From: Polaromonas sp. CG_9.7 | Lineage (GTDB): Bacteria; Pseudomonadota; Gammaproteobacteria; Burkholderiales; Burkholderiaceae_C | DNA length: 64,000 nt | Assembly: GCF_015752205.1 (NCBI RefSeq) | Contig: NZ_JADOVG010000005.1 | Span: 186,001-250,000 of the forward strand | Direction of reading: 5' to 3' | Part shown: piece by piece, positions 1-11,802 of the stretch | How the letters are laid out: each line of letters begins with the position of its first letter | Numbering within the stretch: the first letter of the stretch is position 1 | Program-made: the position numbers and the translations under genes | The notes under the pieces: model-generated | What the model saw: the letters and a program-made list of their open reading frames with translations, nothing else | What the model was told of the DNA's origin: nothing | The model's database searches: none

Positions 1-749
1 GGTGCCACTGTCTGCGCCAGCAGCAGTTTTTCAGCGGTGGGCAAAGGGTCGTCGAGCCGCTCGCGCCAACCCCGAACCACGGCAATCAGGACATTGAGCA
101 GCAGCACCACGCCCAGCAGCACGATGCCCAGCGCCAGCGCCAGCGGCAAGTCGCCCTTGCTGGTTTCCAGCGCAATCGACGTCGTCATGACCCGCGTGAA
201 GCCTTCAATATTGCCACCCACCACCATCACTGCGCCGACCTCGGATATGGCCCGGCCAAACGCAGCCATCAGCACCGTGAGCAAGGCATAGCGCTCGTCC
301 CACAGCAAAATCAGGCTGCGCACAAAGCGCCCCGCGCCCATCGACTGGAACTGCTCGCCGTGGCTGCGGTCGGCGTCGTCGATCGTCTGGCGTACCAGCG
401 CCGTCACCATCGGCAGCACCAGCACGGTTTGCGCCAGCACCATCGCCTTGAAGGAAAACAGCCAGCCCAGAAAACCCAGCGGCCCGGTGCGTGACAGCAG
501 CAAATACACCACCAGCCCGACCACCACCGAAGGCAGGGCCAGCGCGGTATTGAGCAGCGCCAGCACGACAGCCCGACCGCGAAAGCGCGCCACACCCAGC
601 CAGGCGCCCAGCAGCAGCCCGACGCTGCAGGCAATCAGGCAGGCCAGCGCGCTGACAGACAACGACAAGCCAACGATGCCGGCAAACAGCGGATCCAGTG
701 AGGTGATGAGCGAAAAAGCGGTAACGACGCTGTCGGAAAAGGTGTTCAT
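1..749 (-). CDS. Tungstate/molybdate-type ABC transporter permease (TupB-like), 3' end cut by window edge
   Basis: Reading right to left from an ATG at 747-749, an open frame runs to base 1 without a stop (about 249 codons). The product is very hydrophobic and begins MNTFSDSVVTAF. It has about five membrane segments and, near residue 165, the cytoplasmic coupling loop GRAISEVGAVMMVGGN, the EAA-like loop typical of TupB/ModB-type permeases. TupB proteins are usually 230-270 residues, so most of the protein is present. It would form the membrane channel of an oxyanion importer; the ATPase and binding protein are presumably beyond the left edge. It is divergent from a ModE/LysR-like regulator, which supports a Mo/W role. 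Tungstate versus molybdate cannot be decided from this sequence. Confidence 0.8.
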   Translation of the reverse strand, partial: MNTFSDSVVTAFSLITSLDPLFAGIVGLSLSVSALACLIACSVGLLLGAWLGVARFRGRAVVLALLNTALALPSVVVGLVVYLLLSRTGPLGFLGWLFSFKAMVLAQTVLVLPMVTALVRQTIDDADRSHGEQFQSMGAGRFVRSLILLWDERYALLTVLMAAFGRAISEVGAVMVVGGNIEGFTRVMTTSIALETSKGDLPLALALGIVLLGVVLLLNVLIAVVRGWRERLDDPLPTAEKLLLAQTVA

Positions 750-895
750 GGGTCAGGGGTGGCGAGACTGTAGCGCAGCTTTCCTACTTTCCCGGCCCTT
801 AGGTATTTGTCGTTAGGAAGCTGTTTGCATAGGAAAAACGGACGGCGACAAACCGTGCAGCGCCATGGCCCGCATCGATAATCCGTGCACACCCC
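750..895. promoter_or_regulatory. Divergent promoter region between the oxyanion permease and its likely regulator
   Basis: This 146-bp gap must hold the promoters of both flanking divergent genes. It contains inverted heptamers TTTGTCG (near 807) and CGACAAA (near 847), about 32 bases apart, which could be operator half-sites for the adjacent regulator. No convincing -35/-10 pair was identified. Confidence 0.35.
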
Positions 896-1999
896 ATGCA
901 CAAAGTCGAACTCTCTTACCTCCTGAGCCCCCAGCGCGGCAAAGACGCGCTGATCCGCAACCCGATGATGGACATCCTGCATGCCGTCAGCGAGCAGGGC
1001 TCGATCTCAAAAGCCGCCAAGGCGCTCGACTTTTCTTACCGCCATGTCTGGGGCGCGCTCAAGGAATGGGAGCAGACGCTGGGCCGCAGCCTGATCGTCT
1101 GGGACAAGGGCCAGCGCGCGCGCCTGACGGAATTCGGCGAAAAGCTGCTCTGGGCCGAACGCCAGGCGCAGGCCCGGCTGGCACCGCAGATCGAAGCCCT
1201 GCGTGGCGACATCGAACGCGCTTTTTCAACCGCTTTTGACGACAACGCCCATGTGCTGACCCTGTTTGCCAGCCACGACGCGGCGCTGTCGGCGTTGCGC
1301 GACCAGACCAGCGCACACGGCCTGCACCTGGACATTCGCTTCATGGGCAGCGTCGATGCCATGGCAGCGCTGAACGACGGGCGCTGCATGATGGCCGGGT
1401 TTCACGTCCGCGACCAGCCGGCGCGCCATTCGGCGTCGGCGCGCACCTACCGCAGTTTGCTCAAGCCCGGCCTGCACAAGCTGATCGGCTTTGCACACCG
1501 CAAGCAAGGCCTGATGGTGGCCAGACATAATCCGCTGCAAATTGAGGGGCTGGCCGATCTGGCGCTGCCCGGCATGCGCTATGTCAACCGGTCCGAAGGT
1601 ACGGGAACGCGTGTACTGCTTGACGACCTGCTGGCCGAAGCCGGCCTGGCGCCGTCCGCTATTGAAGGCTACGACAGCCAGGAACCGTCGCACACCGCCG
1701 TGGCGCAAGCCATTGCCAGCGGCGCGGCCGACGCCGGCCTGGGCATCGAAGCCGCCGCCCGGGAAAAAGGCCTGGGGTTTGTGCCCCTGGTGCAAGAGCG
1801 CTACCACCTGGTCTGCCTGAACTCCGAACTGCCCACGCCGCAAGTGCAGGCGCTGATCAAGGAACTGCAAAGCGACGAATGGCAAACCACGCTGAACCAG
1901 CTGCCCGGCTACAGCGGCGCGCAGGCCGGGAGCGGCAAGGTGCTGTCCCTGCGCGCGCTGTTGCCTTGGTGGAGCTACCGCAAAGCGAAAGCGGCTTGA
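896..1999 (+). CDS. ModE/LysR-type HTH regulator with periplasmic-binding-like sensor domain
   Basis: The 367-residue protein has an N-terminal winged helix-turn-helix (helix pair about residues 34-58, SISKAAKALDFSYRHVWGAL), resembling the DNA-binding domain of ModE. The remainder, about residues 115-345, resembles a type-2 periplasmic binding fold (for example GMRYVNRSEGTGTRVLLDDL near 225-245), not the MOP oxyanion-binding domains of classical ModE. Such HTH-PBP fusions occur next to tungstate or molybdate transporters and are thought to sense the oxyanion directly. It is transcribed divergently from a TupB-like permease, so the likely target is that operon. Ligand identity is inferred from context. 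The ATG at 896 is the first start in frame near the fold. Confidence 0.75.
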   Translation: MHKVELSYLLSPQRGKDALIRNPMMDILHAVSEQGSISKAAKALDFSYRHVWGALKEWEQTLGRSLIVWDKGQRARLTEFGEKLLWAERQAQARLAPQIEALRGDIERAFSTAFDDNAHVLTLFASHDAALSALRDQTSAHGLHLDIRFMGSVDAMAALNDGRCMMAGFHVRDQPARHSASARTYRSLLKPGLHKLIGFAHRKQGLMVARHNPLQIEGLADLALPGMRYVNRSEGTGTRVLLDDLLAEAGLAPSAIEGYDSQEPSHTAVAQAIASGAADAGLGIEAAAREKGLGFVPLVQERYHLVCLNSELPTPQVQALIKELQSDEWQTTLNQLPGYSGAQAGSGKVLSLRALLPWWSYRKAKAA

Positions 2000-2190
2000 G
2001 GATGGGTGGGTTGCTGCGCAAAGTGTGACGACACAGCATGGCTGCGTGATAGCAACTTTTCAAGCCGCCAAGCAGGAGCAGCCATGTTTTCCCACGAAAT
2101 GCGCGTCTGTTTGACGATTCAGATGACGGCGCAACACAGGAAATCCATACTATTTCGGACCCGACCCGGGAACCATGCCTTTCACCCAGC

Positions 2191-2225
2191 CGGGTCATGG
2201 ATTGCGGATCAAGTCCGCAATGACA
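2191..2225. repeat. REP-like palindrome with ATTGCGGA/TCCGCAAT arms
   Basis: The stem ATTGCGGA (2201-2208), loop TCAAG and TCCGCAAT (2214-2221) form a perfect 8-bp hairpin flanked by GTCATGG and GACA. The unit 'cattgcgg-n-ccgcaatgac' is a dispersed intergenic palindrome seen in many proteobacterial genomes. It lies between two converging genes (regulator stop at 1999, senA stop at 2289) and could also terminate transcription. The rest of the 289-bp gap shows nothing else recognisable. Confidence 0.5.
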
Positions 2226-2288
2226 AAACAGATATCAAACCAAATAAGCTTCCGGCGCAATACCAGATTGGGTAAGCAGTTATTTATT

Positions 2289-3521
2289 TCATAGCGCGCA
2301 AGACCTGAACCCACAAAACATATCGTCCCGCCCAGGCATATAGAAATTACGGTATTTCGGATATTTCATGCGCGCACGGGTCGCAAACGAGCCGCCGCGC
2401 AACACCTTGTGCGTGCCGAACCAGGGCTCAGAATAGGTTTGGTACGGATCTGGCGCAAAACCCGGATAAGGCCGGAACGTCGTGCCCATCCACTCCCACA
2501 CCCCGCCCCAGCGAAAACCCCGGCGCGACGCGGTGTGGGCCGCCACTTCCCATTCCACCTCGGCGGGCAGCCGGCGGCCGGCCCAGCGGCACCAGGCGTC
2601 GGCTTCCCACCAGGTCATGTGCATGGCGGGCTGGGTGCCCTGCATGCGCATGGGCTGGCCAAACCGCGTCTGGATGACCGCACCGCTGCCGATGCCGATC
2701 TGCTCGACGTAACGCGGCCCCCGGCGGCCCTCGCTCGCCGCTTGCGCCTGCAGCCATTGCCAGCCGTCCGGGTGCCACAATTCCTGCCGGTCGTAACCGC
2801 CATCGGCCACAAACTCGACGTACTGCGCCCAGGTCACAGCCTGGGCGTCAATTTCAAACTCGGGCACGTTGACGGTGTGGCCCTGCTTTTCGTTGTCAAA
2901 CGCGAACCCTGAACCGGCGCCGGCGCCTGAGGCAGTGCCCATCTGCCAGGTCGTGGCAGGAATCAGCATTGGCTCGCGCAGCGCCATCGGTGGTGGCGTA
3001 AAGGCCGACTGCAAGGGCTTGTCCAGCGGCAAGCCAATGGTCTGCGCCATGATGGTCAGCGCTTCGCCGTGCATGTCTTCATGAAACAGGCACAGGCGGT
3101 AAAAGTACAAGGCGTCATCGTCGCTGTCGGCTTTTTCAAGCAACTCCAGTGTGCTTTCCAGCGTGTTCAACAGATACGCCCGGCAATTGGCCATGTCCGG
3201 GACATCCAGTGTCCAGCGCGAATCATGCGGCACCTGGTCCGAATCCCACCAGCGGTCTGCGTTGGGCTCGATGGACGCCTGGCGGGCCTGTGCCGGGTCG
3301 CAACGCGTGCCCCGCGCCCGCTGCAGGTTGCGGCCAATCCAGCGCTCCTGAAACCAGGCCACATGGCCCAGTTCCCACAGCGGCGGATTCAGCGTGGCAA
3401 GCAGGGGCACGGCAAATCCGGTTTTCTCCAACGCGTTCTGGTACTGCCCGAAAAGGTGCAGCGTATGATTGCGCGCGTCCATCAGCGCGAGCGACAGGAG
3501 TTCCCGGTCCGCCTTGCGCAT
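2289..3521 (-). CDS. senA: Selenoneine synthase SenA (EgtB-like sulfoxide/selenoxide synthase)
   Basis: The protein has about 410 residues from the chosen ATG (3519-3521). It has an N-terminal DinB-like four-helix domain and a C-terminal formylglycine-generating-enzyme (sulfatase-modifying) domain, the architecture of EgtB. The non-heme iron His triad is visible: H53 in LGHVAWFQERW and H147/H151 in LCLFHEDMHGE. The FGE part carries WGGVWEWMGTTF, VLRGGSFATR and CGFRSC. SenA joins selenoglucose to trimethylhistidine (hercynine) to give selenoneine. The identification rests on the neighbours: a SenB-type glycosyltransferase divergent at 37 bp, followed by a selenophosphate synthetase. Without them one would call it EgtB. 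The frame stays open upstream to 3632, but a start there would overlap senB. No good Shine-Dalgarno is visible. No egtD (hercynine methyltransferase) is in the window. Confidence 0.88.
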   Translation of the reverse strand: MRKADRELLSLALMDARNHTLHLFGQYQNALEKTGFAVPLLATLNPPLWELGHVAWFQERWIGRNLQRARGTRCDPAQARQASIEPNADRWWDSDQVPHDSRWTLDVPDMANCRAYLLNTLESTLELLEKADSDDDALYFYRLCLFHEDMHGEALTIMAQTIGLPLDKPLQSAFTPPPMALREPMLIPATTWQMGTASGAGAGSGFAFDNEKQGHTVNVPEFEIDAQAVTWAQYVEFVADGGYDRQELWHPDGWQWLQAQAASEGRRGPRYVEQIGIGSGAVIQTRFGQPMRMQGTQPAMHMTWWEADAWCRWAGRRLPAEVEWEVAAHTASRRGFRWGGVWEWMGTTFRPYPGFAPDPYQTYSEPWFGTHKVLRGGSFATRARMKYPKYRNFYMPGRDDMFCGFRSCAL

Positions 3522-3558
3522 GAGAGGTGAATCGATCAAATTGGGTGATGTATTGGGT

Positions 3559-4587
3559 ATGGAATCTAAAGCCAAAACAGTGGTCCTGGTAAGCCCGGCG
3601 ATGGCCGAATCAAATAACGGCAACTGGCACACAGCTTACCGCTGGGCAAATTTCTTGTCGAATCATTGTGACATTGCGCTGTTGCCGCACTGGCCATCGC
3701 CGTTGCTGCAGCGCACACCACAAGCGCTGGTGGCGCTGCACGCCCTGCGTTCGGCAGCTTCGATCCGGGCCTGGGCCAAGGCCTGGCCCGACAAACCGCT
3801 GGTTGTGGTGCTGACCGGCACCGACCTGTACCGCGACATCCACAATGATGCTCAAGCGCAGCAGTCGCTGGCGCTGGCGACGCATCTGGTGGTGCTGCAG
3901 GACGCCGGACTGGCGGCATTGCCGGAAGTGTGGCGGAGCAAGACACAGGTGATTTACCAGTCAGCCCCGGCGTTGAAGCCTGCCGACAAGTCCACCCGCC
4001 GTTTTGGCGTGCTCATGGTCGGCCATCTGCGTGACGAAAAAGACCCGCTGACCTTCATGCGGGCTGCGGCCTGTGACTTTGCCGCCGGTGTTCATTTTGA
4101 ACAGATCGGCATGGCGCTGGCGCCGACTTTTGCAGTCGCTGCCCGCGCCACGGAACAACACACCGCGCGCTACCGCTGGTTTGGCGGCTTGAGCCGCGCG
4201 GCCACCCGCCAGCGCATCAAGCGCGCGCACGTCCTGGTGAACTGCTCGCTGATGGAGGGCGGCGCGCAGGTCATTCTGGAAGCCGTGCAGTCGGGCACGC
4301 CGGTGCTGGCGACGCGCATCAGCGGCAACATCGGAATGCTCGGCGAAACCTATGCCGGTTACTTTTCACCCGGCCATGATGCGCAGCTGGCGGCGCTGGT
4401 GCGGCGCTGCGCGGCGGAGCCGGATTTTCTGGCGCTGCTGCAAAGCCAGTGCAGCGCACGGGCAGTCTTGTTTTCGCCACAGCAAGAAAAGCGCCTTGTC
4501 ATAAACTTGCTGGCTTCTGCGCTGGGTGCCCCTGACAGCCTGCGCGACCGGCCTACCCTGTCTTTTTCGCCTTTGAAAGCATCCTGA
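3559..4587 (+). CDS. senB: Selenosugar synthase SenB (GT4-like glycosyltransferase)
   Basis: The product is 342 residues with two Rossmann-like halves of a GT-B glycosyltransferase. The N-terminal half begins MESKAKTVVLVSPA. The C-terminal half has VGHLRDEKDP (154-163) and the donor-binding EGGAQVILEA (233-242) of family 4. In the sen pathway this enzyme couples selenophosphate with a UDP-sugar to form a selenosugar, a C-Se bond-forming step. The ATG at 3559 is preferred because the fold starts there; the frame continues upstream to 3469 with no GT homology and into senA. Its stop overlaps the start of the SelD gene by one base (TGATG at 4585-4589), so the two are translationally coupled. It is divergent from senA. 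Identification is by family plus context. Confidence 0.87.
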   Translation: MESKAKTVVLVSPAMAESNNGNWHTAYRWANFLSNHCDIALLPHWPSPLLQRTPQALVALHALRSAASIRAWAKAWPDKPLVVVLTGTDLYRDIHNDAQAQQSLALATHLVVLQDAGLAALPEVWRSKTQVIYQSAPALKPADKSTRRFGVLMVGHLRDEKDPLTFMRAAACDFAAGVHFEQIGMALAPTFAVAARATEQHTARYRWFGGLSRAATRQRIKRAHVLVNCSLMEGGAQVILEAVQSGTPVLATRISGNIGMLGETYAGYFSPGHDAQLAALVRRCAAEPDFLALLQSQCSARAVLFSPQQEKRLVINLLASALGAPDSLRDRPTLSFSPLKAS

Positions 4588-5660
4588 TGACGACATCCGA
4601 CACCCTGAAAATTCCCGCTGTCCCCCGCCTGACCAGCCTGTCGCACGGCGGCGGCTGCGGCTGCAAGATTGCGCCTGGCGTGCTCAGTGAAATCCTGAAA
4701 AATTCCAGCAATATGCCGGGGCTGAACTTGCCACCCGAGCTGCTGGTAGGCATTGAAACCGCCGACGATGCCGCGGTTTACAAGCTCAACGACGAGCAGG
4801 CCCTGATTGCCACCACCGACTTCTTCATGCCGATCGTTGACGACCCCTATGAATTCGGCCGCATTGCCGCGACCAACGCCATCAGCGACGTGTACGCCAT
4901 GGGCGGCACGCCCATCATGGCGCTGGGCATCGTTGGCATGCCGATCAACGTGCTGCCCCTGGAAACCATAGGCGCCATCTTGCGCGGTGGCCAGGACGTG
5001 TGCCGCGATGCCGGCATTCCGATCGCGGGCGGCCATACGATTGACTCGGTCGAGCCGATTTACGGTTTGGTGGTGATGGGGCTGATCCATCCTTCGCAGG
5101 TCAAGAAAAACTCCGGTGCCAAGCTGGGCGACGTGCTGATTCTGGGCAAGCCGCTGGGCGTCGGCATCTTGTCGGCCGCGCTGAAAAAAGAAGCGCTGAG
5201 CGCCGAAGGCTACGCACAGATGATTGCCGTCACCACCCAGCTGAACAAGCCGGGCATTGAGTTGTCAAAGATGGATGCGGTGCATGCCTTGACCGACGTG
5301 ACCGGCTTTGGTTTGCTCGGCCATGGGCTTGAACTGGCGCGCGGCGCCGCGCTCAAAATGCAGATTCAGCTCGACCAGGTTCCGCTGCTGCCCGGCGTGC
5401 TCGAACTCGCGGAGCAAGGCATGGTCACCGGCGCTTCAGGCCGCAACTGGGAAGGCTACAGCGCAGAAGTTTCACTGCCGGCCGATATCAGCGTGGCCCG
5501 CAAAGCCCTGCTGAGCGACCCGCAAACCAGCGGCGGCCTGCTGGTGGCCTGCGCGCCCGAGGCAGCCGATGCAGTGCTGGCGTGCTTTCAACGCCACGGC
5601 TTTGAAGGCGCGCGCCAGATAGGCACGATGGTCGAGGGCAGCGGCGTCGAAGTCGTCTGA
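4587..5660 (+). CDS. selD: Selenophosphate synthetase (SelD family; SenC of the selenoneine cluster)
   Basis: The 357-residue protein has the usual SelD length and layout. The N-terminal active-site strip SHGGGCGCKIAP (19-30) holds the catalytic Cys24 and Lys27, equivalent to Cys17/Lys20 of E. coli SelD. The metal/ATP loop TTDFFMPIVDDP lies at 76-87 and GGHTIDSVEP further on. The catalytic position is Cys, not selenocysteine. The enzyme makes selenophosphate from selenide and ATP. It is co-transcribed and translationally coupled with senB, so its first role is probably to feed the selenosugar synthase (SenC). It could also serve selenocysteine or 2-selenouridine synthesis, but selA, selB and selU are not in this window. 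Confidence 0.93.
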   Translation: MTTSDTLKIPAVPRLTSLSHGGGCGCKIAPGVLSEILKNSSNMPGLNLPPELLVGIETADDAAVYKLNDEQALIATTDFFMPIVDDPYEFGRIAATNAISDVYAMGGTPIMALGIVGMPINVLPLETIGAILRGGQDVCRDAGIPIAGGHTIDSVEPIYGLVVMGLIHPSQVKKNSGAKLGDVLILGKPLGVGILSAALKKEALSAEGYAQMIAVTTQLNKPGIELSKMDAVHALTDVTGFGLLGHGLELARGAALKMQIQLDQVPLLPGVLELAEQGMVTGASGRNWEGYSAEVSLPADISVARKALLSDPQTSGGLLVACAPEAADAVLACFQRHGFEGARQIGTMVEGSGVEVV

Positions 5661-6045
5661 TTTTCAGCGCAGCAAACCCGGTGACTGGCGCGCAGGAAGG
5701 CCAGCGCCACGCCACCAACCCAGAACCACTCTGACCTGCTGGCCAAATTTATATAAAAAAGGCATTTTTCGCATGCTGCAAAATCGTTTACAGCTATTAA
5801 TTAAATAGCAAGCTCACCACAGGGAATTTTGCTTTTTGCATAAAGCGGTTGCCGGTCAGATCGCTATCGCTTCGAATTCAGCGGGCCCGCGCAATAAAAA
5901 AAAGGCTTCAAGGGACAACACTGTTCATCAGTGGCAAAACAGTTCTTTAGAATCCTTCCCGTTACACAAAACTGTATCGACCAGACTCATCCAGCCTGGC
6001 CTGATCGCTTGATGTGACGTCGTTCTTTAATCCGGAGACAAAAAA
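5661..6045. other. Intergenic region between selD and the TRAP operon
   Basis: This 385-bp non-coding stretch is AT-richer than its surroundings. It holds one GCTAT-N7-ATAGC repeat (5793-5809) and must contain the promoter of the TRAP genes. The ribosome-binding site GGAGA (6033-6037) precedes the TTG start. No intrinsic terminator, riboswitch or small ORF was recognised. Confidence 0.5.
5793..5809. repeat. GCTAT-N7-ATAGC dispersed repeat, copy 1
   Basis: GCTATTAATTAAATAGC is a 17-bp imperfect palindrome with arms GCTATT/AATAGC. Five more 17-bp units of the same form lie at 14618, 26309, 30501, 33695 and 44810. Confidence 0.6.
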
Positions 6046-6648
6046 TTGCGCGCATTACTTAAACTCTCACAGGCCGTGGATGGCCTGAACACCCTGGTCG
6101 GGAAAGTCACCATGTGGCTGATCCTGGCGACCACGCTGATCAGCGCAGGCAATGCCATCGTTCGAAAAATCTTCGACTCCAGTTCAAACGCGCTGCTTGA
6201 AATCCAGTGGTACCTGTTTGCCGGGGTGTTTCTGCTAGGCGCTGGCTACGGTTTGCTGAAAAATTCACATGTGCGCATCGATTTTCTTTCCTCGCGCTTC
6301 AGTGACCGGACACGCAACTGGATCGACGTTGTTGGCATCCTGGCGGTGCTGTTCCCGTTTTGCGTCATCATCATCTCGCTGAGCTGGCCGCTGTTCATGC
6401 AGGCGCTGGAATCAGGTGAAATGTCGCACAATGCCGGCGGCCTGATCCGCTGGCCGGTGTACGGCCTGGTGCCGCTGGGCTTTGCCCTGCTCATGCTGCA
6501 AGGCCTGTCCGAGCTGATCAAGCGCGTGGCGTTTCTGACAGGCCAGGGGCCGGACGTCATATCGGGCGAGGACGTCAAGTCCGACGAACAAAAACACATT
6601 GAAGAGCTGGAGGCCGTTGCCGCCCGCAAACTGGCCGGGAAATCCTGA
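6046..6648 (+). CDS. TRAP transporter small permease (DctQ family)
   Basis: The 200-residue membrane protein has four predicted transmembrane helices (about residues 20-42, 55-75, 97-118, 138-160) and a hydrophilic C-terminal tail. This is the layout of DctQ subunits. The start is a TTG at 6046, chosen because GGAGA (6033-6037) lies at proper spacing; no nearby ATG fits. The stop TGA (6646-6648) is directly followed by the ATG of the large permease, so the two are translated together and would form the QM membrane complex. The binding protein is encoded convergently downstream. Confidence 0.9.
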   Translation: MRALLKLSQAVDGLNTLVGKVTMWLILATTLISAGNAIVRKIFDSSSNALLEIQWYLFAGVFLLGAGYGLLKNSHVRIDFLSSRFSDRTRNWIDVVGILAVLFPFCVIIISLSWPLFMQALESGEMSHNAGGLIRWPVYGLVPLGFALLMLQGLSELIKRVAFLTGQGPDVISGEDVKSDEQKHIEELEAVAARKLAGKS

Positions 6649-8472
6649 ATGCAGACCACCTTTTTGGCACAACAGTTTGTGCCGCTCATGTTCGGGGGGC
6701 TTTTGCTCCTGCTGCTGACCGGTTTTCCGGTGGCTTTTGCACTGGCTGCCGCCGGCCTGGGGTTTGGCTTTATCGGCATTGAGTCCGGAATTTTTCCGGC
6801 CGCACTGTTCCAGGCACTGCCGCTGCGCATCTTCGGCATCATGCAGAACGACACACTGCTGGCGATTCCGTTTTTCACCTTCATGGGCATCATCCTGGAG
6901 CGTTCCGGCATGGCCGAGGACCTGCTGGAAACCGTCGGCCAGGTGTTTGGCCCGCTGCGCGGCGGACTGGCCATCGCGGTGATCCTGGTGGGCGCGCTGC
7001 TGGCGGCCACCACCGGCGTGGTAGCCGCAGCGGTGATCTCGATGGGCCTGATCTCGCTGCCCATCATGCTGCGCTATGGCTACAGCCGGGTGATTGCCAC
7101 AGGCGCCATCACCGCGTCGGGCACGCTGGCGCAGGCGGTTCCGCCTTCCCTGGTGCTGATCGTGCTGGCTGACCAGCTCGGCCGATCAGTGGGCGACATG
7201 TATTCGGGCGCGCTGGTGCCCGGCCTGCTGCTGGTTGGCCTTTACATCCTGTTCATCGTCGTGGTGGCCCTCTTCAAACCGGCCCTGGTGCCGGCGCTGC
7301 CGCAGGAGGCGCGCATTTACCGCGAGCCCACGGGCAGTTCGGGCCACCGTTCCTTGCTGGTGCTGGCGTTGATCTGCACGGCAGTCGGCTTTGGCTGGGC
7401 GCAGGTGCACAACCAGTTGCTGACGGTCTGGCTGGAGCGCAGCATGCCTGCACCGGGGGATGAAATCGTCATCCTGTCGATGACGCTGGCGTCGCTGACC
7501 GGCTTGGCGCTGGCCATCATCAACAAGGTCAGCCGCCTGGGCCTGCTGTCGCGTCTGGCCGAGCAGGTGACATTTGTGCTGATGCCGCCACTGATCCTGA
7601 TCTTTCTGGTGCTGGGCACGATTTTTCTGGGCGTGGCCACACCCACCGAAGGCGGCGCCATGGGCGCGCTGGGCGCGTTGATTCTGGGACTTGGCAAAAG
7701 GCGCCTGTCGTGGTCGCTGCTCAAGCAAGCGCTTGACAACACGGCCAAGCTGGCGTCGTTCGTGCTGTTCATCCTGATCGGCTCGACGGTGTTCAGCTTC
7801 GTGTTCAATGCCGCAGACGGCCATATCTGGGTCGAGCATCTGTTTGACAGCATTCCGGGCGGCGGCTGGGGCTTTTTGATCGTCGTGAACATCCTGGTGT
7901 TCATCCTGGGCATGTTCATCGACTTCTTTGAAATCGCCTTCATCGTGATTCCGCTGCTGGCGCCGGCGGCTGAAAAAATCCTGCCAGGCCTGGTTCCGGG
8001 CATGACGCCGGATGCGGCGATGATCTGGTTTGGCGTCATCATCGCCATGAACCTGCAAACCTCGTTCCTGACGCCGCCGTTTGGCTTTGCGCTGTTTTAC
8101 CTGCGCAGCGTGGCGGCCAAAAAGGACTACAAGGACCGCGTGACGGGCCAGAACATCAAGGCCGTCACCACCAACGAGATTTACAAGGGCTCCATCGCCT
8201 TCATCTGCCTGCAACTGATCATGGTGGCTTCCATCATGATCTACCCGTCACTGGTGACCGGCGGCATCGTGAAGGAAAAAAGCCTGAGCAACTCGGAAAT
8301 CATGGACATCCTGCGCATGCCGGAACCTGAGCCTTTTCCTGTCGATCCGGAGATGCCTGGCGGCGAGGCAGTACCGGCAGAAAACGATGCTGAAGCGCCA
8401 GCCGCCGAGGCAATCGATCCAATGAAGGCGATGCAGGAGGCGCTTGCGAGAAGCGCCAAGCCGGCCCGGTGA
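6649..8472 (+). CDS. TRAP transporter large permease (DctM family)
   Basis: The 607-residue polytopic protein belongs to the DctM (large permease) family. Family hallmarks include the N-terminal GGLLLLLLTGFPVAFALAAA, TGVVAAAVISMGLISLP and ASGTLAQAVPPSLVLIVLAD. It is longer than the usual 430 residues. The extra length is a mid-protein insert of about 90 residues (near 215-310) and a proline/glutamate-rich cytoplasmic tail (PEPEPFPVDPEMPGGEAVPA). Long forms of this kind occur with TakP-type (2-oxoacid) TRAP systems. It catalyses sodium-coupled uptake of the substrate delivered by the binding protein. Confidence 0.92.
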   Translation: MQTTFLAQQFVPLMFGGLLLLLLTGFPVAFALAAAGLGFGFIGIESGIFPAALFQALPLRIFGIMQNDTLLAIPFFTFMGIILERSGMAEDLLETVGQVFGPLRGGLAIAVILVGALLAATTGVVAAAVISMGLISLPIMLRYGYSRVIATGAITASGTLAQAVPPSLVLIVLADQLGRSVGDMYSGALVPGLLLVGLYILFIVVVALFKPALVPALPQEARIYREPTGSSGHRSLLVLALICTAVGFGWAQVHNQLLTVWLERSMPAPGDEIVILSMTLASLTGLALAIINKVSRLGLLSRLAEQVTFVLMPPLILIFLVLGTIFLGVATPTEGGAMGALGALILGLGKRRLSWSLLKQALDNTAKLASFVLFILIGSTVFSFVFNAADGHIWVEHLFDSIPGGGWGFLIVVNILVFILGMFIDFFEIAFIVIPLLAPAAEKILPGLVPGMTPDAAMIWFGVIIAMNLQTSFLTPPFGFALFYLRSVAAKKDYKDRVTGQNIKAVTTNEIYKGSIAFICLQLIMVASIMIYPSLVTGGIVKEKSLSNSEIMDILRMPEPEPFPVDPEMPGGEAVPAENDAEAPAAEAIDPMKAMQEALARSAKPAR

Positions 8473-8514
8473 TTTTCACGGTGAACCGGGTGGCCGGCGC
8501 TGTTGGCCAAACCA

Positions 8515-8553
8515 AAAAAAGCCTGGCCGCAGAGATGCAGCCAGGCTTTTTAA
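8515..8553. terminator. Bidirectional intrinsic terminator between converging TRAP genes
   Basis: AAAAGCCTGGC pairs with GCCAGGCTTTT across a short loop, with an A-run on the left and a T-run on the right. It therefore can terminate both the permease operon from the left and the binding-protein gene from the right. Confidence 0.85.
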
Positions 8554-8574
8554 CGGGTACTGACTGGTCAGCGT

Positions 8575-9657
8575 TTAGATCTTGACCGACGCCATGTAGT
8601 TGCTGAAAGCCGATTCAGAGAAACGTGCCCACAGTAACTGGTCACGCTGGAACGCACGCATGTCGGTATGAATCTTCTTGAACTCGGGCGACTTGGCCTC
8701 GTGCTCGGCAAACACTTCCATCGACGCCTTGTAGCCGGCATCCATGATGGCTTTGGGGAAGGCCTTGAGCTGGGTCTTGGCGCCGACCAGCTTTTTCAGG
8801 GCAATCGGGTTGACGGCATCGTACTTGGCCGTCATGTCGCGGGCCGCAACGGCGGTGGCCGCATCGACGATGGCCTGGAATTCGGGGCTCAGCGCTGCAT
8901 AGGCTTTGGTGTTGATGAAGAACTCCAGCTCGGCGCCGCCTTCCCACCAGCCGGGGTAGTAATAAAACGGCGCAACCTTGTTGAAGCCGAGCTTTTCGTC
9001 GTCGTAAGGACCGACAAACTCCACCGCGTCAAGCGTGCCTTTTTCAAGAGCCTGGTACACCTCGCCCGCCGGCATGTTCTGCGGCACGACGCCGAGCTTT
9101 TGCATGGCTTCGCCGAACAACCCGCCGCCCAGGCGCATCTTCAGGCCCTTCAGGTCAGCGACAGTCTTGATTTCCTTGCGGTACCAGCCGCCCATCTGGG
9201 TGCCGGTGTTGCCGGCGCTGCGGCTCTTGATGTTGTACTGGGCGTAGAACGCATCCATCAGCTTGCGGCCGTTGCCGTGTTCCATCCAGGAATCCATCTG
9301 GCGGGCCGTCAGGCCGAAAGGCACGGCGCAGCCAAAAGCAAAAATCGGGTCCTTGCCAGAGAAATAGTAAGACGCCGTTTGCGCCATCTCGACGGTGCCG
9401 TTTTGCACGGCATCGACGACGCCAAAGGCCGGCATCAGTTCGCCGGCCGCATGCACCGACACTTCAAACTTGCCGCCTGACAGGGCTTTCACCGTCTTGG
9501 CGAACATTTCGCCGCTGCCAAAAATGGTGTCCAGCGATTTGGGAAAGCTGGACGCCATGCGCCAGCGAACAGCGGTCTGCGCATGCACGGCGGGTGCAAT
9601 GCCTGCAGCCAGCACACCGGCAATGCCAGCGTTTTTAATGAGTGATCGACGATCCAT
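8575..9657 (-). CDS. TRAP transporter substrate-binding protein (DctP family, TakP-like)
   Basis: The 360-residue protein has a twin-arginine-like export signal (MDRRSLIKNAGIAGVLAAGI, cleavage probably after AVHAQ near 27). The mature DctP-type fold carries KTVADLKGLKMRLGGGLFGE, AGEVYQALEKGTLDAVEFVG and the loop GWWEGGAELEFFIN. The last motif resembles TakP from Rhodobacter sphaeroides, a sodium-dependent binder of pyruvate and other 2-oxoacids. The protein collects ligand in the periplasm for the adjacent permease pair. It is encoded convergently to them rather than in the same operon, so binding-protein level can be set independently. Substrate class is by family resemblance. Confidence 0.88.
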   Translation of the reverse strand: MDRRSLIKNAGIAGVLAAGIAPAVHAQTAVRWRMASSFPKSLDTIFGSGEMFAKTVKALSGGKFEVSVHAAGELMPAFGVVDAVQNGTVEMAQTASYYFSGKDPIFAFGCAVPFGLTARQMDSWMEHGNGRKLMDAFYAQYNIKSRSAGNTGTQMGGWYRKEIKTVADLKGLKMRLGGGLFGEAMQKLGVVPQNMPAGEVYQALEKGTLDAVEFVGPYDDEKLGFNKVAPFYYYPGWWEGGAELEFFINTKAYAALSPEFQAIVDAATAVAARDMTAKYDAVNPIALKKLVGAKTQLKAFPKAIMDAGYKASMEVFAEHEAKSPEFKKIHTDMRAFQRDQLLWARFSESAFSNYMASVKI

Positions 9658-9891
9658 GAGTGCTCTCTTTTTGAAAAGTTAACGATTGCTTGTGTCGTAT
9701 TTGCCTGTCGGTCAGCACCCAAGATTTCTTGCGGCCATGCCCGTGACAGTCACGATGGCCGCCGGTAGCGGCCTGTCTGACATTTTGTCAGTTTTTGTAC
9801 CGCTTTCGCCCCGTTGTTACCCGTAGAAAAGCGCAAAAACGGCAGGCAGGTGCCAAACGCGGTGGACAAGTTCTTCTGTGCCCCTGCTTGG

Positions 9892-11802
9892 TCAGGCCAC
9901 CGATTTCAGTATGACCTTGGCCAGCGGGTCGTGAACCTTGATGTCACCAAAACGCTGGCGGATGGCGGCCTCAATGCCGGCGGCATCCAGGCCCTGCAAG
10001 GCGAGCAGATGAGCCGGGTCACCGTGCTCAATGAACTCGTCGGACAGCCCGAGCTGCAATAGTGGCCTGAGAATGCCTGCTGCCTGCAATGCTTCACCGA
10101 CTGCGCTGCCTGCACCGCCCATGACGGCACCCTCTTCCACTGTCACCAGGGCTTCATGGCTGGCGGCGATTTTCAGCAGCAGTTCAGTGTCCAGCGGCTT
10201 GGCCCAGCGCATGTTGACAACGGTTGCGCCAAGCTTTTCAGCCGCCTGCAGCGCCGGGTACAGCAGCGTTCCGAAAGCGAGAATGGCAATGTGATGGCCT
10301 TCCCGGCGCACCTCGCCCTTGCCAAACGGAAGCGACTTCAAACCCGCCTCGGGCTCGACACCCACGCCAGCGCCACGCGGATAGCGAACGGCCACCGGCG
10401 AGTTCTGCTCGAATGCGCTGGTCAGCAATTTGCGGCACTCGTTTTCGTCAGCCGGGCAGGCAATGCCCATGTTGGGAATACAGCGCAAAAATGGAATGTC
10501 GTAGGCACCGGCATGGGTGGCACCATCGGCACCCACCAGCCCGGCGCGGTCAAGGGCAAACACCACCGGCAGGTTTTGCAGCGCCACGTCGTGAATCAGC
10601 TGGTCGTAGCCGCGCTGCAAAAAGGTCGAGTAAATCGCCACCACGGGCTTGAGGCCCTCGCAGGCCATGCCGGCGGCAAAGGTCACCGCATGCTGCTCGG
10701 CAATGCCGACATCGTGGTATCGCTTGGGAAAGCGGCGGTGGAACTCCACCATGCCCGAACCTTCGCGCATGGCCGGTGTGATGCCGACCAGGCGCGGGTC
10801 GTGCTCGGCCATGTCGCAAAGCCAGCGGCCAAACACCTGGGTAAAGGTTTGCTTGGCGGGCGTGCTGGACTTCTGCAAGCCCAAGGATGGATCGAACTTG
10901 CCGGGGCCGTGATAGGCAATCGGATCGGCTTCGGCGAGCTTGTAGCCCTGGCCTTTTTTCGTCACGACATGCAGGAACTGCGGCCCTGCGCCGGTCGCCA
11001 GCAGGTGCTTGATATTTTCCATCGTGGGAATCAGTGATTCCAGGTCATGGCCGTCGATCGGGCCGATGTAGTTGAAGCCAAAGTTCTCGAACAGCGTAGC
11101 CGGCACGACCATGCCCTTGGCATGGGATTCGAGCCGACGGGCCAACTCCAACAGCGGCGGCGCCACGCGCAGCACCTGCTTGCCGACCTGCCGGGCCGAC
11201 GCATAGAAGCGTCCGCTCATCAGTTGCGCAAGGTGGCGGTTGAGCGCGCCCACGGGCGGACTGATGCTCATGTCGTTGTCGTTGAGCACCACCAGCAGGC
11301 GGCTGTCGTCATGCACACCGGCATTGTTCAGCGCTTCAAACGCCATGCCGGCGCTCATCGAGCCATCGCCGATGATGGCCACGGCATTGCGCTCTTCGCC
11401 CTTGAACTGCGAAGCCAGCGCCATGCCGAGTGCTGCCGAGATCGAGGTCGATGAATGCGCGGTACCGAACGTGTCGTACTCGCTCTCGTCGCGCCGCGGA
11501 AAACCCGACAGCCCGCCAAACTGGCGCAAGCTGGCCATGCGTTCGCGTCGGCCCGTCAGGATCTTGTGCGGATAGGTTTGGTGGCCCACGTCCCAGACCA
11601 GGCGGTCGTCGGGCGTGTTAAAGACATAGTGCAGGGCCACCGTCAGTTCGACCGTGCCCAGGTTGGAGCTTAGATGCCCACCGGTTTTGGAAACGCTGTC
11701 GAGCACGTAGGCGCGCAATTCGTCGGCCAGCGTCTTGATCTGCGCGCGTGGCAGCCTGCGCAGGTCAGCCGGACTGTTGATGGTTTCGAGCAATGAGTAC
11801 AT
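9892..11802 (-). CDS. dxs: 1-deoxy-D-xylulose-5-phosphate synthase
   Basis: The 636-residue protein is full length for Dxs. It makes DXP from pyruvate and glyceraldehyde-3-phosphate, the first step of the MEP isoprenoid pathway. The thiamine-diphosphate site [18 protein letters not shown] and the transketolase-like pyrimidine domain [20 protein letters not shown] are clear. The C-terminal transketolase domain ends normally. It follows ispA by 37 bp and xseB upstream, forming the xseB-ispA-dxs operon common in proteobacteria. Confidence 0.98.

What the first reader, a model, noticed from the sequence alone, without database searches (positions are those of the whole stretch)
2289..5660. Complete selenoneine biosynthesis locus senA / senB-senC
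Seen directly: an EgtB-fold enzyme with the H53/H147/H151 iron triad, divergent by 37 bp from a GT4-type glycosyltransferase that is fused by a one-base stop-start overlap to a SelD with active-site Cys24/Lys27. Established: SenA, SenB and SenC (described in Variovorax and others) build selenoneine through a selenosugar. Inference: this bacterium makes selenoneine. The locus lacks egtD, so hercynine must come from elsewhere in the genome or from uptake.
Basis: partly seen in the sequence, partly recalled or inferred. Interest (0 to 1): 0.85.

Follow-up and report, generated by a model that had tools for sequence, protein, structure and literature searches.

The report
Selenoneine biosynthesis gene cluster in Polaromonas
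This bacterium carries a complete, already known three-gene set for making the selenium antioxidant selenoneine, and comparison with its relatives shows one of the enzymes repeatedly losing its iron site, yet being kept, where its usual partner gene is gone.

Summary
The finding is correct and of a known kind. senA (2289-3521, -), senB (3559-4587, +) and senC (4587-5660, +) form a canonical selenoneine cluster in a Polaromonas-like genome. All three pass curated NCBIfam models; SenA groups with crystallised SenA, not with the genome's own EgtB. The open question is answered: egtD lies on another contig, egtB too, so hercynine is probably made in-house. senC is the only SelD over its cut-off; a 2-selenouridine synthase is present and no selA was found, so SenC probably feeds two selenium sinks.

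Relatives gave something less ordinary. In 12 of 52 same-genus SenA orthologues the three-histidine iron site is broken although the frame is open and under purifying selection. Eight of these genomes show no senB over its cut-off (four of them under 90% complete); in four, senB appears to belong to a second sen-type cluster. One intact SenA lacked a detectable senB (74% complete genome). The tree needs about four losses, too few for significance. This supports SenA-SenB coupling and suggests a second, iron-independent role of the protein. In five genomes broken senA stands directly upstream of a tungstate-type transporter operon.

The parts
2289..3521 (-). senA, selenoneine synthase (iron-dependent, EgtB fold), 410 aa from ATG 3521; triad H53/H147/H151 intact
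   Evidence: NF041186 508.8 bits over cut-off 420, TIGR03440 EgtB 238.9 under cut-off 360; PDB 8k5i 366.8 bits vs EgtB 4x8b 152.4; tree; triad
3522..3558 (.). 37-bp gap between the divergent senA and senB start codons; any promoters would have to lie largely inside the coding regions (inference)
   Evidence: The gap is also exactly 37 bp in 8 of 30 other Polaromonas-type loci that hold all three genes; over the window and those 8, 23 of 37 columns are invariant, about as in the flanking coding bases (40 of 60, 36 of 60); no sigma-70-like match in 3400-6100; no Rfam family in 1-10000
3559..4587 (+). senB, selenosugar synthase (GT-B Se-glycosyltransferase), 342 aa
   Evidence: TIGR04348 425 bits over cut-off 300; PDB 8k5u 291.3 bits, 8fbx 273.8 bits; residues matching N20, T23, K158, E231 of V. 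paradoxus SenB kept as N22, T25, K161, E233; H235 is Q237, V157 is E160
4587..5660 (+). senC, selenophosphate synthase (SelD family), 357 aa; start overlaps the senB stop by one base
   Evidence: NF002098 537.3 bits, TIGR00476 435.7 bits; 3u0o 315 bits with Cys and Lys aligned; only SelD over cut-off in the genome

Best explanation
A working selenoneine pathway of the published kind. SenC turns selenide and ATP into selenophosphate; SenB attaches the selenium to a UDP-sugar and releases phosphate, giving a selenosugar; SenA uses iron and oxygen to join the selenosugar to hercynine, and the selenoxide eliminates and is reduced to selenoneine. Hercynine comes from EgtD encoded on another contig and is shared with EgtB, so ergothioneine is probably made too. 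SenC, the only SelD found, probably also serves the 2-selenouridine tRNA enzyme MnmH. Shown here: gene identity, intact key residues, gene order, presence of egtD, egtB and mnmH, no selA hit, no second SelD over cut-off. Inferred: the reactions (from characterised relatives), hercynine sharing, double use of selenophosphate, expression.
For: Curated models all passed. Nearest solved structures are SenA, SenB and SelD. SenA groups with 8k5i, not EgtB. Divergent senA within 100 bp of senB in 57 of the 72 fetched loci that hold all three genes, and 9 more divergent with a 2.2-kb gap (the loci were found with peptides of this SenB). EgtD, EgtB at C3:82527-83768, MnmH at C14 341.9 bits, no SelA hit, one SelD over cut-off. 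In 12 of 61 genus genomes senB adjoins egtD; 43 of 47 genomes with senB have an egtD hit above 100 bits, against 4 of 14 without senB (Fisher p 8e-6 over 61 genomes, 0.028 over the 33 at least 90% complete; not corrected for kinship). An intact iron triad goes with senB.
Against: No expression or metabolite data. No promoter match was found in or near the 37-bp gap. SenB carries Q where V. paradoxus SenB has H235, a contact to the sugar C4' (PMC10891094, passages), and E where it has V157, so donor preference may differ. The NCBIfam SenA model also passes a relative with a broken iron site (P0085, 481 bits), so the score alone does not prove activity. The genus association with egtD rests on related and partly incomplete genomes.
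Confidence: 0.93

Rival explanations
1. SenA here is really an EgtB-type ergothioneine enzyme, and the neighbouring GT and SelD are incidental.
For: Same fold; TIGR03440 (EgtB) scores 238.9 bits.
Against: That is under EgtB's cut-off of 360 while SenA's cut-off is passed; the genome has a separate full EgtB of 565.7 bits; the tree splits them; senA stays divergent and close to senB in 57 of 72 loci.
Confidence: 0.02
2. senC is the housekeeping SelD for tRNA selenouridine that happens to lie in the sen operon, and selenoneine is a minor or lost use.
For: It is the only SelD over cut-off and mnmH is present; three related genomes without senB keep selD beside senA.
Against: senB and senA are intact with key residues kept, whereas SenA loses its triad in relatives without senB. 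Both uses can hold at once.
Confidence: 0.05
3. The cluster makes another selenium metabolite (for example ovoselenol, or a selenosugar end product) rather than selenoneine.
For: OvsA structures are the next nearest to SenA (203.1 bits), and OvsA falls inside the wider 104-row SenA/OvsA group of the tree; SenB is promiscuous for sugar donors (PMC10891094, passages) and its C4' contact is changed here.
Against: SenA 8k5i scores 366.8 bits against 203.1 for OvsA, and OvsA lies outside the 68-row clade that holds the window SenA and 8k5i.
Confidence: 0.03

Closest known systems
sen cluster of Variovorax paradoxus DSM 30034 (Kayrouz et al. 2022, Nature; paper itself not held, known from PMC9814287 read whole and PMC10891094 passages)
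   Same: Three genes senA, senB, senC; same protein families; residues that matter in SenB and the iron histidines of SenA kept
   Different: Different genus; SenB has Q and E at the positions of H235 and V157; gene order of V. paradoxus not compared here
sen loci of other Polaromonas and Burkholderiales (loci L002-L081)
   Same: Divergent senA|senB-senC with a short gap in most; in many Polaromonas loci also the downstream TRAP genes and the upstream regulator
   Different: Some have a 2.2-kb gap with an unknown ORF between senA and senB; in other same-genus genomes senB lies behind egtD or is followed by a SelD fused to an oxidoreductase
EgtB (ergothioneine) and OvsA (ovoselenol) enzymes
   Same: Fold; EgtB has the three-histidine site in the aligned places
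   Different: Other branches of the tree; different sulfur or selenium donors (recalled)

Membership tests
Selenoneine (sen) cluster | SenA over its curated cut-off and grouping with characterised SenA rather than EgtB | tested here: met
   508.8 vs cut-off 420; tree
Selenoneine (sen) cluster | Intact three-histidine iron site in SenA | tested here: met
   H53, H147, H151; aligned with histidines of 8k5i
Selenoneine (sen) cluster | SenB of family TIGR04348 with the catalytic lysine and the N/T/E sugar-site residues | tested here: met
   425 vs cut-off 300; N22, T25, K161, E233
Selenoneine (sen) cluster | SenB 'EGGAHV' motif as in V. paradoxus, including H235 | tested here: not met
   EGGAQV here. 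The position varies: Q 23, H 8 in 31 Polaromonas-type loci; N 36, Q 10, H 2, unread 1 in 49 others. I do not take it as defining: the paper calls the motif highly conserved, not invariant, and reports partly preserved activity for H235 mutants
Selenoneine (sen) cluster | SelD-family SenC with active-site Cys and Lys | tested here: met
   C24, K27
Selenoneine (sen) cluster | Source of hercynine in the genome | tested here: met
   EgtD at C10:154499-155407
Selenoneine (sen) cluster | Production of selenoneine | not testable with these tools
   Needs LC-MS of cells grown with selenite
EgtB, ergothioneine synthase | TIGR03440 over its cut-off | tested here: not met
   238.9 vs cut-off 360

The most novel reading that the evidence does not exclude
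SenA of Polaromonas has a second role that needs no three-histidine iron site. In about three or four lineages that lack the senB normally beside it, the protein lost the iron site yet was kept in frame under purifying selection, and on two branches of the tree it stands directly upstream of, and in line with, a tupBCA tungstate-type transporter operon. If so, catalytically intact SenA such as the one in this window may carry the same hidden role beside making selenoneine, and the public name 'selenoneine synthase' for the P. naphthalenivorans protein is wrong.
Probability: 0.45. Interest if true: 0.65.

Novelty: new member of a known kind. Interest (0 to 1): 0.35.

Why it matters
With one SelD, a tRNA selenouridine enzyme and no selenocysteine synthase found, the genome is a simple setting in which to ask how selenium is split between tRNA and a small molecule. 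The repeated loss of the SenA iron site where its senB is gone is a natural knock-out series; it also warns that an equivalog-level SenA call is not proof of selenoneine synthesis, and it offers a possible pseudoenzyme with an unknown role to test.

Tried and rejected
A dedicated selenium importer beside the cluster: the downstream TRAP genes (6046-9657) keep their place in many Polaromonas loci but gave no hit beside sen in the Massilia and Duganella loci, so I treat them as synteny, not part of the pathway. The putative selenate transporter model TIGR04553 has no hit over its cut-off of 250 in this genome (best 101.5 bits), though 14 of 61 genus genomes have one.

Regulation: no sigma-70-like match in 3400-6100 (0 found, shuffles mean 0.7) and no Rfam hit in 1-10000; the 37-bp gap is not more conserved than its flanks (the loci compared were picked for having that gap).

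The idea that E for V157 marks a kind of SenB: all 80 loci have E, but the loci were found with seed peptides taken from this SenB, one of which spans that residue, so the count is biased and I draw nothing from it. All 80 were also found through senB, so the absence of broken triads among them (31 of 31 Polaromonas-type intact; among 44 others with a SenA hit no other residue seen, 1 or 2 unread per position) is not an independent test; the genus survey is.

Tree cautions: one search is a quick tree (SH-aLRT only) and its own check warns of long branches that may meet falsely, among them OvsA with the SenA-like row of L073 (84). The second-type SenA rows are of two sorts: G250's groups with L073, G306's and G293's with 8k5i; G250's could therefore be nearer to OvsA, although it passes the SenA cut-off (450.1 bits).

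Statistics of the triad loss: only 3 independent pairs on well supported branches; the sign test gives a median p of 0.5 (no senB in the genome) and 0.25 (no senB of the same cluster type, a definition made after seeing the data), so it is not significant. Rows dropped before that count of 52: three second-type SenA rows (G306, G250a, G293b), the split G276 gene (triad intact in the part read, senB present), and the partial genes of G307 and G284 at contig ends. In H-H-Q forms a metal might still bind; I claim a broken three-His site, not proven absence of metal.
Full report
What is there. The window is G000:C5:186001-250000 of a 4.15-Mb genome given as 100% complete. The three genes are at the stated place: senA on the minus strand 2289-3521, senB 3559-4587 and senC 4587-5660 on the plus strand. 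The start codons of senA and senB are 37 bp apart, and senB and senC overlap by one base (TGATG); they are separate proteins, not a fusion.

Identity. Against NCBIfam, SenA scores 508.8 bits with NF041186 (cut-off 420) and only 238.9 with EgtB TIGR03440 (cut-off 360); SenB scores 425 with TIGR04348 (cut-off 300); SenC scores 537.3 and 435.7 with two SelD models. Against solved structures SenA is nearest to SenA 8k5i (366.8 bits), then OvsA (203.1), then EgtB 4x8b (152.4); SenB is nearest to 8k5u and 8fbx; SenC to 3u0o. In a tree of 134 rows the window SenA and 8k5i share a 68-row clade with support 97, and the genome's own EgtB is in a 29-row EgtB clade with support 100; OvsA falls outside the 68-row clade but inside the wider 104-row group (quick method, SH-aLRT only, with a warning about long branches).

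Pathway, as published (PMC9814287 read whole; PMC10702425 first of three parts read; PMC10891094 passages only; the 2022 Nature paper itself not held): SenC makes selenophosphate, SenB makes a selenosugar, SenA joins it to hercynine and selenoneine follows. Residues that matter in V. paradoxus SenB (N20, T23, K158, E231; PMC10891094) are kept as N22, T25, K161, E233; H235 is replaced by Q237. That position varies among relatives (Q 23 and H 8 in 31 Polaromonas-type loci; N 36, Q 10, H 2, unread 1 in 49 others), so it is a lead on donor choice, nothing more.

The rest of the genome. EgtD is at C10:154499-155407, 363.6 bits with TIGR03438 against a cut-off of 290.9; I recognised no other ergothioneine or sen gene among the ORFs of the 18 kb around it (read by eye). 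EgtB is at C3:82527-83768, 565.7 bits. The only SelD over the cut-off is senC; two further hits of 40.8 and 19.8 bits are under the cut-off of 125. A 2-selenouridine synthase, MnmH, is at C14 with 341.9 bits. SelA has no hit. So hercynine can be made in-house, ergothioneine is likely too, and SenC is probably shared between selenoneine and tRNA selenouridine (inference).

Gene order in relatives. One search kept 80 of 83 loci that encode a SenB relative. In 72 of the 80, hits to senA, senB and senC were all found; in 57 of these 72 senA is divergent within 100 bp of senB, in 9 more divergent with a gap of about 2.2 kb, and 6 differ. In many Polaromonas loci the regulator upstream (896-1999) and the TRAP genes downstream recur as well. 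Variants among same-genus genomes, from fetched stretches: in 5 genomes (G254, G303, G308, G289, G300) senA and senC stand head to head with no senB between, and senB sits directly behind egtD elsewhere; in G258, G267 and G284 the order is egtD>senB>(oxidoreductase-SelD fusion), with G271 cut short at a contig end; in G250 and G285 senB is followed by that fusion. In all, egtD and senB adjoin in 12 of 61 genus genomes. The oxidoreductase part matches TIGR03169 'Nterm_to_SelD' (on a Rhodoferax example), so such fusions are known as such. Over the 61 genomes, 43 of 47 with senB have an egtD hit over 100 bits, against 4 of 14 without senB; the four exceptions are 78-85% complete.

The broken SenA. 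Three genomes listed at 100% completeness (G272, G280, G309) have senA and senC but no SenB over the cut-off; a direct search with this SenB found only weak hits of 19.6-24.7 bits. Their SenA genes are full length without stops, 75-82% identical to the window SenA, but the triad reads H-H-Q, H-F-R and H-H-R respectively. Surveying the genus gave 52 orthologous SenA rows including the window: 39 intact with senB, 8 broken without senB over the cut-off, 4 broken with senB, and 1 intact without a detected senB (G279, 74% complete). Of the 8 without senB, four genomes are listed at 100% completeness (G272, G280, G309, G262), the others at 78-89% (G270, G256, G282, G295), so some absences may be gaps. 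In the 4 broken-with-senB genomes the senB belongs, or appears to belong, to a second sen-type cluster: an additional, distant SenA (38-41% identity) with an intact triad was read in G250, G306 and G293, while in G269 only a 69-residue contig-end piece of such a SenA was seen. G285, which has both a second-type senB and the usual one, keeps an intact triad. The tree needs 4 changes of state (bootstrap range 3-5; at least 3 forced by well supported branches). Pairwise dN/dS between genes that are both broken is 0.14, 0.16, 0.26, 0.17 and 0.21, against 0.11, 0.11, 0.10, 0.12 and 0.18 for five intact pairs (ratios computed from the dN and dS; dS is near or above 1 in several pairs, so these are rough). 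Of 69 positions invariant in 49 intact rows, 46 are kept in all 12 broken rows; the positions lost in 12 of 12 are H151, Y360 and S94, the last counting one gap (invariance of the triad in the intact rows is by construction). So the change is concentrated at and near the iron site while much of the scaffold is held. In a database search with one broken form, 53 of the 120 listed proteins lack the full triad (120 listed of 6820 found, and the query favours broken forms). In the wider list S94 and Y360 are sometimes kept. One of the broken ones, P0085, is named 'selenoneine synthase SenA [Polaromonas naphthalenivorans]' by its source, lies on a contig of the same length as that of G272, and passes the NCBIfam SenA cut-off at 481 bits.

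What the broken form may do. In this genus the sen locus often lies next to a regulator and a tungstate-type ABC transporter (TupA-like 235.7 bits, under its cut-off of 400). Of the 9 broken loci fetched, in 5 (G262, G270, G282, G293 and, on another branch of the tree, G250) the broken senA stands directly upstream of tupBCA in the same direction and no regulator hit was seen in the stretch (short on one side for G282 and G270); in G306 the regulator lies between them; in G295, G256 and the short contig of G269 no tup gene was seen. In G272, G280 and G309 the usual order with the regulator is kept. Kept selection plus convergent placement suggests a second role of the protein, perhaps in oxyanion uptake or sensing. 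This is my inference; the number of independent events is too small for statistics (sign test median p 0.25-0.5).

Novelty. The locus is a new member of a known kind; relatives are already named SenA in public records. The held library gave no paper with both 'selenoneine' and 'Polaromonas', none with both 'EgtB' and 'pseudoenzyme', and no 'pseudoenzyme' occurrence in the eight papers listed; most subscription papers are not held. The broken-triad SenA is the part I would look at again.

Noticed in passing
L175 (G272), L176 (G309), L177 (G280), L219, L220, L221, L223-L228: Full-length, open SenA orthologues with a broken three-His iron site, in same-genus genomes without senB or with senB in a second sen-type cluster; about four losses on the tree, purifying selection retained.
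   Followed up: yes
L234 5001-8558, L235, L236, L237, L239: Broken senA directly upstream of, and co-directional with, tupBCA (tungstate-type ABC transporter) in five genomes on two branches of the SenA tree; no hit to the regulator that usually lies between.
   Followed up: partly
L156-L165 (G254, G303, G308, G289, G300): senB has left the sen locus and sits directly behind egtD, while senA and senC remain head to head at the usual place.
   Followed up: partly
L166-L170, L172, L073: sen-type clusters whose SelD is the C-terminal part of an oxidoreductase-SelD fusion; in G250, G284, G285, G287 and G306 a TIGR04553 putative selenate-transporter gene lies within a few kb of a senB.
   Followed up: partly
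L020 1857-3779, L021 3003-4871, L024 8062-9930, L177 6052-7842: An ORF of 588-641 aa (L021 copy: no Pfam or NCBIfam match) lies between senA and senB; seen in the three loci read, and seven further Polaromonas loci have a gap of the same 2.2 kb there. A relative lies between senA and senC in the senB-less G280.
   Followed up: partly
window 896-1999: LysR-type DNA-binding domain joined to a PBP-like domain, convergent with senA and next to the tungstate-type transporter that straddles the window start; found upstream of senA in many Polaromonas loci.
   Followed up: no
window 6046-9657: TRAP transporter dctQ, dctM and a dctP on the other strand, syntenic with sen in many Polaromonas loci; substrate unknown.
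   Followed up: no
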